DNA from: Massilia sp. R2A-15
GTDB taxonomy: Bacteria > Pseudomonadota > Gammaproteobacteria > Burkholderiales > Burkholderiaceae_D
Length of the DNA: 64,000 nucleotides
Assembly: GCF_030704305.1 (NCBI RefSeq)
Contig: NZ_CP131935.1
Coordinates: 1,922,001 to 1,986,000 of the forward strand
Direction of reading: 5' to 3'
Below are positions 8,305-13,159 of the stretch, one piece after another. The translations under genes were made by a program, and so were the position numbers. The notes beneath the pieces were generated by a model. That model was not told the origin of the DNA, searched no databases, and was given only the letters and a program-made list of their open reading frames with translations. Numbering within the stretch: position 1 is the stretch's first letter; each line of letters opens with the position of its first letter.

Positions 8305-10467
8305 ATGCATATGAGACATGCATCGCTGGTCGCCGCGCTGCTCGCCACGTTCGGCGTGAACGCGCTGGCCCAGACCTGCGCGCCGGCCAGCGCCCCGCTG
8401 GCCTACCCGGTCGCCAAGAAGGTCGAACAGACCGACAACTATCACGGCACCGTCGTCGCCGACCCGTACCGCTGGCTGGAAGACGCCAACAGCGAAGAGA
8501 CCAAGCAGTGGGTCGACGCCGAAAACAAGGTCACCCAGGCTTACCTGGGCCAGATTCCGGCGCGCGAAGCGATCAAGCAGCGTCTCACCAAACTGTGGAA
8601 CTACGAGCGCTACAGCGTCCCGTACAAGGAAGGCGGCCGCTATTTCTACAGCCGCAACGACGGCCTGCAGAACCAGTCGGTGCTCTACACGATGAACAAG
8701 CTGTCGGACACGCCGCGCGTGCTGCTCGACCCGAACACCCTGGCCGCCGACGGCACCGTTGCGCTGTCGGGCACCGCCGTCAGCCCCGACGGCAAGCTGC
8801 TCGCTTATGGCACCGCCGCCTCCGGCTCCGACTGGAACGTCTGGAAGGTGCGCGATATCGCCACCGGCAAGGATCTGCAGGACGAAATCAAGTGGGTCAA
8901 GTTCTCCTCGACCTCCTGGACGCACGACGGCAAGGGCTTCTTCTACAGCCGCTACGACGAGCCGAAAGAAGCGACCAAGCTGGCCGATGTCAACTACTTC
9001 CACAAGCTGTACTTCCATAAAATCGGCACGCCGCAAAGCGCCGACACACTGGTCTACGACCGCGCCGATCAGAAGGAGTGGGGCTTCGGCGCCCACGTCA
9101 CGGACGACGGCCGCTACCTGCTGATCAACGCCACCCAGGGTACCGCGCACAAGAACCGCGTGTTCTTCAAGGACCTGACCCGGCCCGACGCCAAGGTGCT
9201 GCCGCTGATCGATGCCTTCGAATCGGCCTACGAGTTCGTCGACAACGACGGCCCGGTGTTCTACTTCGTCACCGACAGCAAGGCGCCGCGCCAGCGCCTG
9301 ATCGCCATCGATACCCGCAAGCCACAGGAAGCGAACTGGAAGGTCATCGTGCCGGAGGGCGCCCACACGCTGGTGTCGGCAAGCCGCGTCAACAACCAGT
9401 TCGTCACCGAGTACCTGGCCGATGCGCGCAGCATGGTCAAGGTGTTCGACCGTAACGGCCGCGCGCTGCGCGAGGTCACGCTGCCGGGCATTGGTTCGGC
9501 GGCGGGCTTCGGCGGCAAGCGCGGCGATACCGAGACGTTCTACTCGTTCACCGGCTTCACCAACCCGACCACGATCTACCGGCTCGACATGAAGACCGGC
9601 GCCAGCACCGTGCTGCGCCAGCCGAAGGTCGATTTCGATCCGTCGCAGTACGAGACTCGCCAGCAGTTCTTCACCAGCCGCGATGGCACCAAGGTACCGA
9701 TGTTCATCGTCTCCAAAAAGGGCCTCAAGCTCGATGGCCAGAATCCGACCTACCTGTACGGCTATGGCGGCTTCAACATCTCGATGACGCCCGGCTTCTC
9801 GCCGGCCAATCTGGCATGGATGGAAATGGGCGGTGTTTATGTGATGGCGAACCTGCGCGGCGGCGGAGAATACGGCCAGGCCTGGCATGAAGCGGGCACC
9901 AAGCTGCAGAAGCAGAACGTCTTCGACGACTTCATCGGCGCGGCCGAATGGCTGATCGCCAACAAGGTGACGTCGCCGGCCAAGCTGGCAATCGGCGGCG
10001 GCAGCAACGGCGGCCTGCTGGTCGGCGCGGCGATGACGCAGCGTCCGGAGCTGTTCGGCGCGGCGATCCCGATGGTCGGCGTGATGGACATGCTGCGCTT
10101 CCACAAGTTCACCATCGGCTGGGCATGGGCCTCGGATTACGGTTCGGCCGACGATCCCGAGCAGTTCAAGGCGCTGGTGAAGTACTCGCCGCTGCACAAC
10201 CTCAAGGCCGGCAGCTGCTACCCGGCGACCATGATCACCACGGCCGACCATGACGACCGCGTGGTGCCGGCGCACAGCTTCAAGTTCGCCGCGACCGCGC
10301 AGGCCGCGCAGGCGGGCGGGGCGCCGATCATCATCCGGATCGACACCAAGGCCGGCCACGGAGCCGGCAAGCCGACCACCAAGCAGATCGAAGAAGTGGC
10401 CGATCGCTGGGGCTTCCTGACCCGCGCCCTGAAGATGGACGCGCCTGCCAAGGTGGCCGCGCAGTAA
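8305..10467 (+). CDS. Secreted prolyl oligopeptidase (S9A)
   Basis: 720 aa. Signal peptide 1-23 (ends ALA-Q) places it in the periplasm or outside. Seven-bladed propeller domain in the middle, beginning after PYRWLEDANSEET, then the alpha/beta hydrolase domain. Catalytic residues: Ser567 in GGGSNGG, Asp in ADHDDRVVP (about 650), His685 in AGHGAGKPT. It cleaves short peptides after proline. Monocistronic: a gap of 70 bp separates it from the GGDEF gene and a strong terminator follows. Length and motifs match the family, so the call is secure. Confidence 0.95.
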   Translation: MHMRHASLVAALLATFGVNALAQTCAPASAPLAYPVAKKVEQTDNYHGTVVADPYRWLEDANSEETKQWVDAENKVTQAYLGQIPAREAIKQRLTKLWNYERYSVPYKEGGRYFYSRNDGLQNQSVLYTMNKLSDTPRVLLDPNTLAADGTVALSGTAVSPDGKLLAYGTAASGSDWNVWKVRDIATGKDLQDEIKWVKFSSTSWTHDGKGFFYSRYDEPKEATKLADVNYFHKLYFHKIGTPQSADTLVYDRADQKEWGFGAHVTDDGRYLLINATQGTAHKNRVFFKDLTRPDAKVLPLIDAFESAYEFVDNDGPVFYFVTDSKAPRQRLIAIDTRKPQEANWKVIVPEGAHTLVSASRVNNQFVTEYLADARSMVKVFDRNGRALREVTLPGIGSAAGFGGKRGDTETFYSFTGFTNPTTIYRLDMKTGASTVLRQPKVDFDPSQYETRQQFFTSRDGTKVPMFIVSKKGLKLDGQNPTYLYGYGGFNISMTPGFSPANLAWMEMGGVYVMANLRGGGEYGQAWHEAGTKLQKQNVFDDFIGAAEWLIANKVTSPAKLAIGGGSNGGLLVGAAMTQRPELFGAAIPMVGVMDMLRFHKFTIGWAWASDYGSADDPEQFKALVKYSPLHNLKAGSCYPATMITTADHDDRVVPAHSFKFAATAQAAQAGGAPIIIRIDTKAGHGAGKPTTKQIEEVADRWGFLTRALKMDAPAKVAAQ

Positions 10468-10488
10468 GCGATGCATTGACCGAAATCG

Positions 10489-10523
10489 AGGCGCTAGACG
10501 AGAACTTGTCTAGCGCCTTTTTT
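10489..10523 (+). terminator. Rho-independent terminator after prolyl oligopeptidase
   Basis: Perfect 11-bp stem AGGCGCTAGAC / GTCTAGCGCCT with an 8-base loop and six T at the end. Confidence 0.92.
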
Positions 10524-10593: not shown

Positions 10594-10622
10594 TTGACGC
10601 TCCAATTTCTCGAATCTACACT
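10594..10622 (+). promoter_or_regulatory. Sigma-70 type promoter of the brnTA locus
   Basis: TTGACG at 10594-10599, a 17-bp spacer, TACACT at 10617-10622. The first ATG of brnT (10627) falls almost at the predicted transcription start, so the toxin mRNA would be leaderless or nearly so. BrnA antitoxins usually repress this promoter; no clear palindrome is seen over it. Confidence 0.5.
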
Positions 10623-10626
10623 GAGA

Positions 10627-10900
10627 ATGTTGATTGAATTTGATCCCCGGAAGCGCGAATGGACGATCGACAACCGTGGGTTGGATTTCCTGAAAGCGGT
10701 CGACGTCTTTTGCCGGACCAGTGATTAACTTTATTGATTCAAGGTTTAATTACGGTGAGCAACGCGTCCGTACTTTCGGTGCGCTCGCTGGGCGTTGGGT
10801 CATCGTGGTGTGGACCGCGCGTGGCGCGAAACGACGGATAATTTCGATGAGGTATGCCAATGAGCGGGAAATTGCGCAATTCGCCCACAGAGTGGGTTGA
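10627..10900 (+). pseudogene. brnT: brnT toxin gene, frameshifted
   Basis: The first frame reads MLIEFDPRKREWTIDNRGLD then FLKAVDVF and is followed by CRTSD and a stop at 10728. The rest of the BrnT protein continues in the next frame: AGPVINFIDSRFNYGEQRV, then RTFGALAGRWVIVVWTARGA and KRRIISMRYANEREIAQF, stopping at 10900. Removing one T from the TTTT run at about 10708-10711 rejoins the two parts into a full-length protein of about 90 aa with the family landmarks (EFDP, RxIISMR.AN.RE). BrnT is a RelE-fold ribonuclease toxin. Only the single-base shift is seen, so it is either a recent inactivation, a sequencing error or a slippage site. Confidence 0.85.
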
Positions 10901-11144
10901 TCCGGACGATGCACCTGAACTGACGGCGGAGTTTTTCGATAAGGGAACGCCTATGATTGGCGATCGCGAGGTATCGTTTGAGGAATTTGCTCGCGCCGCC
11001 AGGAAGGCCGTACCGATAGACAAGATACCGGTAATGGTTCACATAGATGTCGATATTCTCGACGCATTCAGGGCAACCGGTGATGGGTGGCAGGACAGGA
11101 TGAATCAGGCGATGCGTGAGTGGATGATATTGAACCTCCGCTGA
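10860..11144 (+). CDS. brnA: BrnA family antitoxin
   Basis: 94 aa from the ATG at 10860, chosen because GAGG at 10849-10852 is correctly spaced for it and not for the ATG six bases upstream. The N-terminal part (DPDDAPELTAEFFDKGTP) and the ribbon-helix-helix C-terminus (VMVHIDVDILDAFRATGDGW, then QDRMNQAMREWM) match BrnA, which binds and neutralises BrnT and represses the operon. The start lies inside the end of brnT, the usual coupled arrangement. The gene is intact although the toxin reading frame is broken. Local base composition is clearly more AT-rich than the neighbours, suggesting acquisition by transfer. Confidence 0.85.
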   Translation: MSGKLRNSPTEWVDPDDAPELTAEFFDKGTPMIGDREVSFEEFARAARKAVPIDKIPVMVHIDVDILDAFRATGDGWQDRMNQAMREWMILNLR

Positions 11145-11155
11145 CATAATAATCG

Positions 11156-11731
11156 TTAGCGGTGCACCACCACCAGCAATGCTTTCGCTTCAGTCTTCCC
11201 GGTATTCCGAATCACATGTCCCTGGTCGGCCGCATAGCGCGCCGTGCCGCCGATCTTGATCTTCTTCTTGTCCGCGCCCACTTGCACTTCCAGCGCGCCG
11301 TGCAGCACCGTCAGATGTTCGCCTGTGCCAGGATCGTGCGCCTGCGACGCCAGCTCGCCCCCTGGCGCGAGGGTCAGTTCATACCACTCGTATTTGCCGG
11401 CCAAATCCATCGGCCCCAGGATGCGCAACGTGTAGCCGGCATGCGCGCCGGGCAGGGTGGGGGTCTCGTGCGCTTCGAGCACGCGGATCGCCTCCACCGC
11501 GGGCGCTTCGGCCGTCAGCAATTCGCCAATCTGCACGCCCAGCGCATTGGCCAGGCGCCAGGTGATGGCAATCGTCGGGTTCGCCTTCTCGCGCTCGATT
11601 TGCGATAACATCGACTTGGAAACCCCCGCGATGCGCGACAGGTCTTCCAGCGTCAGTCCACGCGCCAGCCGCAGGCGCTGCAAGGTAGCGCCCACCTCAG
11701 GCGGCGAATTGGTCGAAACAGGTGTCTTCAT
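11156..11731 (-). CDS. XRE-family regulator with C-terminal cupin sensor
   Basis: 191 aa. Residues about 14-67 are a Cro/C1 helix-turn-helix (LRLARGLTLEDLSRIAGVSK, SMLSQIEREKANPT); about 110-185 is a small cupin barrel (PGGELASQAHDPGTGEHLTV, GHVIRNTGKTEA). This architecture is common in regulators of amino-acid and polyamine catabolism where the cupin senses a metabolite. The start at 11731 (MKTPVSTNSPP) is preferred for length, but an in-frame ATG at 11761 is also possible. It is divergent from kbl-tdh-sdaA across about 215 bp, so it probably controls threonine/serine catabolism and itself. Confidence 0.85.
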   Translation of the reverse strand: MKTPVSTNSPPEVGATLQRLRLARGLTLEDLSRIAGVSKSMLSQIEREKANPTIAITWRLANALGVQIGELLTAEAPAVEAIRVLEAHETPTLPGAHAGYTLRILGPMDLAGKYEWYELTLAPGGELASQAHDPGTGEHLTVLHGALEVQVGADKKKIKIGGTARYAADQGHVIRNTGKTEAKALLVVVHR

Positions 11732-11839
11732 GAGTAATCGGCGCTCTTGTTCAAAATGCATTTCCAGGGGAATTCCACGGCGGGACTTGCCAAGTTCAAC
11801 AGGCTTGGGTAGTATCCATTATATTGAATTTGAGTTCGA

Positions 11840-11947: not shown

Positions 11948-13159
11948 ATGAGCGATCAAGCGAAGAACGCGTTTTTCAGCGGCCTGCAAACCAACCTGGA
12001 CACGCTGCGCGAGCAGGGCCTGTACAAGCCTGAGCGCGTGCTCGCTTCGCGCCAGGGCGCCGAAGTCGATGGCGCCGACGGCAGCCACCTGATCAATATG
12101 TGCGCCAACAATTATCTCGGCCTGTCGGGCGACGTGCAGACCCAGGAAGCCGCGGCCGCGGCGCTGGAAAAGTACGGCTACGGCCTGTCGTCGGTGCGCT
12201 TCATCTGCGGTACCCAGACCGTCCACAAGGAACTGGAAAATGCGATCTCCGAATTCCTCGGCATGGAAGACACCATCCTGTACGCGGCGGCCTTCGACGC
12301 CAACGGCGGCCTGTTCGAGCCGCTGTTCGACGAGAACGACGCGATCATCTCGGACGCGCTGAACCACGCCTCGATCATCGACGGCATTCGCCTGTGCAAG
12401 GCGGCGCGCTACCGCTACCAGAACAACGACATGGCCGACCTCGAGGCGCAGCTGAAAGCGGCCACCGCGGCCGGCAAGCGCCACAAGGTCATCGCCACCG
12501 ACGGCGCGTTCTCGATGGACGGCACCATCGCCAAGCTCAATGAAATCTGCGATCTCGCCGACAAATACGGCGCGCTGGTCATGATCGACGAGTCGCACGC
12601 CTCCGGCTTCATGGGCAAGACCGGCCGCGGCACCCACGAGCACCACAACGTCATGGGCCGCATCGACATCATCACAGGCACCCTGGGCAAGGCCCTGGGC
12701 GGCGCGATGGGCGGCTTCACCTCGGCGCGCAAGGAAGTGATCGACACCCTGCGCCAGAAGTCGCGCCCGTACCTGTTCTCCAATACGCTGGCCCCGATGA
12801 TCGCCGGCGCATCGCTGGCTGTCCTCAAGCGCATCACCAGCTCGACCGAGCTGCGCGACCGCCTTGAGGAAAACACCGCATACTTCCGCAAGGAGATCGA
12901 ACGCATCGGCTTCACCATCAAGCCAGGTACCCACCCGGTGGTGCCGGTGATGCTGTTCGACGCGCCGATCGCGCAGAAATTCGCCGCCCGCATGTATGAG
13001 CTGGGCGTGCTGCTGTCGGGCTTCTTCTACCCGGTGGTGCCGATGGGCCAGGCGCGCGTGCGCGTCCAGCTGTCGGCGGCGCACACCCGCGAGCAGCTCG
13101 ACACCGTACTCAAGGCCTTCGAGCAGGCCGGCCGCGAACTCGGCATCCTGAAAAACTGA
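11948..13159 (+). CDS. kbl: 2-amino-3-ketobutyrate CoA ligase (glycine C-acetyltransferase)
   Basis: 403 aa, PLP-dependent alpha-oxoamine synthase. It cleaves 2-amino-3-ketobutyrate with CoA into glycine and acetyl-CoA, the second step of threonine breakdown. The PLP lysine is Lys248 in [10 protein letters not shown]; the cofactor-binding DESHASG and the [10 protein letters not shown] entry motif are present. Start at the ATG after GAGGATAAC. It is first in the operon kbl-tdh-sdaA, with tdh starting 35 bp after its stop, and is divergent from the XRE-cupin regulator. Confidence 0.96.

What the first reader, a model, noticed from the sequence alone, without database searches (positions are those of the whole stretch)
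10627..11144. Intact BrnA antitoxin beside a brnT toxin broken by a single extra T
Two adjacent frames together encode a full-length BrnT; deleting one T in the TTTT run at about 10708-10711 restores it (VF + AGPVINFIDSRFNYG). All other landmarks are kept, so the break is recent, or it is a sequencing error, or the homopolymer is a slippage point that makes low toxin amounts. An orphan BrnA could still act as an anti-toxin against homologous systems. The locus is also AT-richer than its surroundings, as expected for acquired DNA.
Basis: partly seen in the sequence, partly recalled or inferred. Interest (0 to 1): 0.72.

Follow-up and report, generated by a model that had tools for sequence, protein, structure and literature searches.

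The report
Antitoxin gene beside its broken toxin
A Massilia-type bacterium carries a toxin-antitoxin gene pair in which the toxin gene appears recently broken while the antitoxin gene still looks intact, an ordinary kind of decay that turns up again at several other places in its relatives.

Summary
On a closed 5.03-Mb chromosome of a Massilia-type Oxalobacteraceae, two overlapping frames at 10627-10900 match the two halves of BrnT (PF04365) with no profile positions missing between them. An intact BrnA (PF14384) follows, more likely starting at 10860 than 10854. A public 101-aa BrnT from a 1.6-kb contig is intact and matches both halves almost letter for letter, so the break is recent.

A sequencing error is not excluded but less likely: 1 of 139 comparable genes in 400 kb shows such a break. 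Slippage-made toxin has no support.

The pattern recurs. A same-genus genome has brnA at the same site with brnT cut by an internal deletion. Family-wide, 6 of 29 other BrnA loci lack a whole brnT; in 5 of these brnA is open and its ribosome site kept. The brnA copies of the two same-site genomes are about four times more diverged at silent sites than a neighbouring gene, suggesting acquired or exchanged alleles.

Most likely: toxin-first decay of a type II module, leaving a probably expressed, self-repressing orphan antitoxin. Protection against other BrnT toxins is untested. New member of a known kind; modest interest.

The parts
10488..10519 (+). Intrinsic terminator-like hairpin after the S9 peptidase gene, upstream border of the brn module
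   Evidence: Terminator scan (1 site found, 1.9 expected in shuffles, so the scan alone is no evidence); G003 has a hairpin followed by T's at the same place (by eye)
10594..10622 (+). Promoter-like hexamers (TTGACG, 17 nt, TACACT) just upstream of brnT, the likely brnTA promoter
   Evidence: Promoter scan (4 sites found in 1.55 kb, 0.6 expected); the first hexamer and its surroundings are conserved in G003, the second is not
10627..10728 (+). brnT, 5' piece: frame from ATG to premature TAA; N-terminal about 28 residues of BrnT followed by an out-of-frame tail
   Evidence: profile positions 1-29 of 90; no ribosome pairing at this ATG (0.1 kcal/mol)
10694..10900 (+). brnT, 3' piece: second frame carrying the remaining two thirds of BrnT (first start codon GTG 10721)
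   Evidence: PF04365 E 1.3e-12; 61% identical to the intact BrnT paralogue over 54 aa; profile positions 27-90 of 90
10849..10862 (+). Ribosome-binding site and start codon (10860) of brnA, inside the 3' end of brnT
   Evidence: Anti-SD pairing -7.0 kcal/mol here and in G003; aligned
10860..11144 (+). brnA, intact antitoxin, 94 aa
   Evidence: PF14384 over its full length; 33 proteins in the homologue search, its own copy included

Best explanation
A horizontally acquired type II brnTA module between a prolyl-oligopeptidase-like gene and a convergent HTH-cupin gene has lost its toxin. A recent, genuine short length change inside brnT shifts the frame after about 28 residues and ends translation about 130 nt before the likely brnA start. 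The promoter-like site and the brnA ribosome site are untouched, so BrnA is probably still made and, as BrnA alone is reported to bind its own promoter, probably still represses its own operon. Toxin loss with antitoxin kept is the expected order of decay, because the reverse order would poison the cell, and it recurs at several other BrnA loci in the family. Shown: both pieces, intact brnA, intact near-identical homologue, recurrent lesions. Inferred: that the lesion is in the cell's DNA, expression, self-repression, and loss of toxicity of both pieces.
For: Pieces and intact BrnA. Intact near-identical BrnT in public data. The same site in a same-genus genome has brnA open and brnT cut by an internal deletion. 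Family census: 23 of 29 other BrnA loci have a single-frame BrnT covering at least 80 of 90 profile positions; 6 do not, 5 of these with an open BrnA, with different flanks apart from the shared window/G003 site. Low background of frame breaks in this assembly: 1 of 139 ORFs. The brnA ribosome site is kept. BrnA alone binds its promoter in Brucella (passage in PMC10714953, citing work that I did not see).
Against: No reads were seen, so a base-calling error remains possible, and the near-identity of the intact homologue fits an error as well as a recent mutation. Two of the six sister lesions are frame breaks in draft genomes and could be errors themselves. Selection on brnA after the break cannot be measured: the omega of 0.21 between the window and G003 mostly reflects time before the breaks. 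Expression was not measured.
Confidence: 0.78

Rival explanations
1. Sequencing or assembly error: the strain has an ordinary intact brnTA pair and the frame break exists only in the record.
For: An intact homologue nearly identical to both halves exists, so the break is very young or not real. One other frame-break-like gene appears in 400 kb.
Against: 0 of 34 orthologous ORFs in the window and 1 of 139 in 400 kb show breaks, about 1 per 156 kb of coding sequence, whereas 6 of 29 other BrnA loci lack a whole BrnT, 4 of them through deletion or wider decay that base-calling cannot explain. The run is short, and the assembly is rated 100% complete.
Confidence: 0.14
2. Kept antitoxin with a job (an extension of the best explanation, not exclusive of it): BrnA is maintained by selection as an anti-addiction or cross-neutralising factor against incoming brnTA modules or the intact paralogue on the same chromosome.
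For: Five other BrnA loci lost brnT while keeping the brnA ribosome site, by eye also the promoter region, and an open brnA. The chromosome holds an intact brnTA whose BrnA is 56% identical with a similar acidic N-terminal stretch. Anti-addiction by a chromosomal antitoxin is described for CcdA (passage in PMC7354431).
Against: Toxin-first decay gives the same picture with no benefit to the cell. The census started from BrnA, so loci that lost brnA are not seen. At G097 both genes have decayed. The closest BrnA relatives in 72,556 plasmid and 50,697 phage records are under 60% identical.
Confidence: 0.22
3. Slippage or recoding at the break, or restart at GTG 10721, yields a little whole or split active toxin.
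For: The second frame's first start codon overlaps the end of the first frame, so restart is conceivable.
Against: Ribosome pairing before GTG 10721 is at background (-2.6 against a mean of -2.8). No other locus has a frame break at this place: G405 breaks earlier, G290 later, 23 of 29 are uninterrupted, and in the remaining four the place is deleted or decayed and says nothing. The run is short.
Confidence: 0.04

Closest known systems
BrnTA type II toxin-antitoxin module (Brucella abortus BrnT/BrnA; PF04365/PF14384)
   Same: Gene order toxin then antitoxin with overlap; profile match of both; the BrnT homologue profile matches the solved BrnT 3u97 (E 1.6e-6)
   Different: The toxin frame is broken, so there is no complete toxin gene
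Orphan antitoxins left by decayed TA pairs (surveyed in Klebsiella, E. coli and marine genomes: PMC7192599, PMC10790755, PMC12654330; passages seen)
   Same: Antitoxin kept, partner absent or degraded, original context kept
   Different: Here the toxin remnant and the kind of each lesion are visible; no paper in the held library has the phrase 'orphan BrnA'
Anti-addiction antitoxins such as chromosomal CcdA of Erwinia chrysanthemi (passage in PMC7354431)
   Same: Chromosomal antitoxin that could act on a foreign toxin
   Different: No neutralisation shown, no close mobile counterpart found

Membership tests
BrnT toxin (PF04365) | Sequence match to the family profile | tested here: met
   C piece E 1.3e-12, above cut-off; N piece E 0.016, below cut-off; together 90 of 90 positions of a homologue profile
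BrnT toxin (PF04365) | One uninterrupted reading frame of about 90-100 codons | tested here: not met
   Stop at 10726-10728 and change of frame
BrnT toxin (PF04365) | Ribonuclease activity and toxicity | not testable with these tools
   Needs a bench assay
BrnA antitoxin (PF14384) | Full-length profile match in an open frame | tested here: met
   E 8e-16, profile 1-68 of 68
BrnA antitoxin (PF14384) | Lies directly downstream of and overlapping brnT | tested here: met
   brnA start 10860 lies inside the 3' piece of brnT, which ends at 10900
BrnA antitoxin (PF14384) | C-terminal ribbon-helix-helix fold, promoter binding, toxin neutralisation | not tested
   Structure prediction did not complete; sequence searches of solved structures gave nothing or only chance-level matches; binding needs a bench test
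Functional type II TA module | Intact toxin and antitoxin genes in one operon | tested here: not met
   Toxin frame broken
Orphan antitoxin from a decayed pair | Intact antitoxin, degraded toxin in the partner position | tested here: met
Programmed frameshift gene | Frame break at the same place in relatives | tested here: not met
   Of 29 other BrnA loci, 23 are uninterrupted, 2 break elsewhere, and 4 lack or have decayed at this part

The most novel reading that the evidence does not exclude
Loci of the form promoter - disabled brnT - brnA ribosome site - brnA are a recurring, selected end state: the cell disarms the toxin but keeps the antitoxin under its own self-repressing promoter, as a standing guard against related BrnT toxins on its own chromosome or on incoming DNA. 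The window is a very young case, G003 a second case at the same site with a different lesion and a different allele.
Probability: 0.2. Interest if true: 0.5.

Novelty: new member of a known kind. Interest (0 to 1): 0.27.

Why it matters
It gives one clear, recent snapshot of how chromosomal toxin-antitoxin pairs may die: the toxin goes first and the antitoxin stays open. The family comparison puts a rough figure on it (6 of 29 other BrnA loci without a whole BrnT), and the five loci with open BrnA and different lesions could be used to test whether such leftover antitoxins still protect cells. For this one locus the result is otherwise ordinary.

Tried and rejected
Considered and rejected: chance resemblance (profile and homologue matches are strong). 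Programmed frameshift or slippage (no shared break, weak restart site). Simple vertical descent of the module with G003 (brnA silent divergence about four times that of kbl; replacement or separate acquisition fits better, but a faster-evolving gene is not excluded). Mobile plasmid or phage origin: only distant relatives (58 of 72,556 plasmid records, all under 60% identity; 4 of 50,697 phage records, matches over about half the length). A scan of genome contigs with BrnA alone found nothing: 68 stretches matched a pattern, none encoded a relative. Solved-structure searches for BrnA found nothing or three chance-level matches. NCBIfam gave the three brn pieces no hit except one meaningless weak match to a ribosomal protein, PADLOC none.

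Limits of the counts: the census used all 30 BrnA places (window included); 'whole' means one frame covering at least 80 of 90 profile positions. The toxin-side census opened only the 30 loci returned (window included); the other places in that table, some flagged with a stop inside, were not opened. Sister loci share sites (six loci of one genus, for example), so 29 is not 29 independent events. The frame-break census kept ORFs of 100 aa or more with at least 65% identity and dropped all others. In one search two of the six loci (L164, L176) were printed at a wrong offset; they were printed again.

Full report
Where it is. The window is bases 1,922,001-1,986,000 of a single-contig 5,028,452-base genome rated 100% complete. 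Its HTH-cupin neighbour is 92% identical to that of Massilia eurypsychrophila and 76-92% in the 80 loci kept of 227, which carry names such as Massilia, Janthinobacterium, Duganella, Rugamonas, Pseudoduganella and Herbaspirillum. The strain itself is not named by any search. The locus lies between a prolyl-oligopeptidase-like gene (8305-10467, +) and a convergent HTH-cupin regulator (11156-11761, -), then kbl (11948-13159, +).

What is there. The frame from ATG 10627 stops at 10726-10728. A second + frame, open from about 10694 with first start codon GTG 10721, runs to 10898-10900. BrnA follows. Searched apart, the N piece matches BrnT weakly (E 0.016, below the family cut-off) and the C piece clearly (E 1.3e-12); BrnA matches PF14384 over all 68 positions. 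On a profile built from 45 natural BrnT homologues the pieces cover 1-29 and 27-90 of 90 positions. The homologue alignment matches the solved Brucella BrnT, 3u97, at E 1.6e-6, and a chain named only 'toxin', 7vd7, at E 3.5e-13. The brnA start is more likely 10860 than 10854: ribosome pairing is -7.0 against -3.3 kcal/mol, the same site in G003 gives -7.0, and the 10854 ATG is not conserved there. The ATG of brnT has no ribosome pairing (0.1 kcal/mol). The promoter scan found 4 sites where 0.6 are expected in shuffles; the terminator scan found 1 where 1.9 are expected, so that one is not evidence by itself.

Age of the break. A database protein of 101 aa (P0001, source not given, longest contig 1642 bases) is an uninterrupted BrnT. 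It is 98% identical to the C piece, differing at the piece's start residue, and it matches the N piece; the only other difference that I saw lies upstream of ATG 10627. So an intact copy exists in a very close relative, and the break is recent or is not in the cell at all.

Error or mutation. Comparing the window with the matching 100 kb of G001 gave 34 matched ORFs each way and no frame break in either direction. Comparing 400 kb around the window with 351 kb of G001 gave 1 candidate break in this genome among 139 matched ORFs (51,927 aa) and 3 in G001 among 130. That is about 1 per 156 kb of coding DNA here, whatever its cause. Of 29 other BrnA loci, 6 lack a whole BrnT, 4 of them by deletion or wider decay. 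A genuine lesion is therefore the better bet, but only reads can settle it; the two sister frame breaks (G405, G290) could themselves be errors in draft genomes.

Same site in relatives. In same-genus genome G003 the same neighbours flank an open brnA (61% identical, 57%), while brnT keeps only about its first six codons and its last 22 or so, with roughly 180 bases gone between and a new stop just before brnA. G003 is a draft rated 82% complete with a run of N in the neighbouring HTH-cupin gene. None of 80 named loci shows BrnT or BrnA similarity within the fetched stretch (tblastn E up to 0.01); four of these stretches were shortened by a contig end. In 46 of 80 the peptidase gene is also in reach, and in 18 of these 46 only 79-370 bases separate it from the HTH-cupin gene, one of them (L094) judged on a 32-residue match. 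In M. eurypsychrophila the 2.35-kb interval holds genes that I read as a potassium-transporter pair (reading recalled, not searched). Between the window and G003, brnA has dN 0.31 and dS 1.47, against 0.056 and 0.36 for kbl (the larger dS is near saturation and rough). That fits separate acquisition or allele exchange at one site.

How common is it. BrnA was searched against 392 family genomes at E up to 1e-10: 29 genomes, 30 places including the window and its paralogue. Of the 29 places other than the window, 23 have a single-frame BrnT covering at least 80 of 90 profile positions directly upstream and 6 do not. The six: G003 internal deletion; G332 internal deletion from about codon 9 to the brnA ribosome site; G167 deletion from the promoter region to mid-gene; G405 early frame break; G290 mid-gene frame break; G097 where both genes are decayed. 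In the first five brnA is open and, by eye, its ribosome site and the promoter region upstream are kept. Apart from window and G003, no two of these share both flanks; G405 and G167 share a downstream stretch of 111 bases at 77%. From the toxin side, in the 30 loci opened (29 besides the window), 3 of 29 have a broken BrnT (G405 and G290, already counted, and G299 with an in-frame stop), and 1 of 29 (G364) has a whole BrnT without a BrnA profile match; there a short BrnA-like frame follows that, by eye, keeps an N-terminal part only. Toxin broken with antitoxin whole thus outnumbers the reverse 7 to 1 (window included) in what I opened. The numbers are small, and the BrnA-based search cannot see loci that lost brnA.

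Mechanism. Reported for Brucella: BrnA neutralises BrnT in a 2:2 complex, and BrnA alone as well as the complex binds the operon promoter (passage in PMC10714953, citing Heaton 2012, which was not available). In an A. citrulli homologue, residues at positions 17, 18, 29 and 86 were needed for activity (same paper, passages); its antitoxin, in contrast, did not bind the tested promoter DNA. Such residues lie early and late in the protein, so neither piece here is likely to be active alone (inference; I did not map them). The promoter-like site and the brnA ribosome site make BrnA expression and self-repression likely (inference).

Other copies in the genome. The chromosome also carries an intact brnTA at C1:964766 (BrnA 56% identical, BrnT 61% identical to the C piece over 54 aa), a BrnT at 4,850,044 followed by an overlapping ORF without a Pfam match, and two BrnA-like genes without a BrnT match beside them at 210,086 and 4,483,828. 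The paralogue is an obvious partner for a cross-neutralisation test.

Literature. Searches 'orphan BrnA' (0 papers), BrnA + orphan antitoxin + BrnT (1 paper, passages seen) and brnT + frameshift + antitoxin + pseudogene (3 papers, listing seen; passages of one of them, PMC7354431, on other terms) showed me no report of recurrent toxin-less brnA loci. This covers only the open-licence library, and I read no paper whole. Broader BrnT/BrnA listings were seen, and passages on BrnT and on fused brnTA genes in PMC11980606. Orphan antitoxins in general are well surveyed (passages).

Verdict. Most likely a real, recent, ordinary decay of the toxin half of a type II module, with an interesting but unproven hint that the antitoxin half tends to be kept in working order.

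Noticed in passing
Own genome C1:4,850,044-4,850,280 (locus L002): An intact BrnT (E 1.6e-23) is followed by an overlapping 102-aa ORF with no Pfam match instead of BrnA, and a ParE toxin gene lies upstream; a BrnT with an unusual partner.
   Followed up: partly
Own genome C1:210,086 (L005) and C1:4,483,828 (L007): Two short BrnA-family genes with no BrnT match next to them; possibly further orphan antitoxins or DNA-binding proteins.
   Followed up: no
Window 10488-10519 and L009 about 1945-1985: The terminator-like hairpin after the peptidase gene appears kept in G003 with changes in its arms, seen by eye in the alignment.
   Followed up: no
L191 (G364): Whole BrnT beside a short BrnA-like frame that seems to lack the C-terminal part: toxin kept with a truncated antitoxin.
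   Followed up: partly
L043 and L070, spacer between peptidase and HTH-cupin genes: Short repeated units in the spacer (for example copies of GGGGTCAGAGTC in L070), perhaps dispersed intergenic repeats.
   Followed up: no
Own genome about C1:1,986,200-1,987,350, just beyond the window: One more gene with a frame-break-like signature against G001, the change of frame lying near 1,987,108.
   Followed up: no
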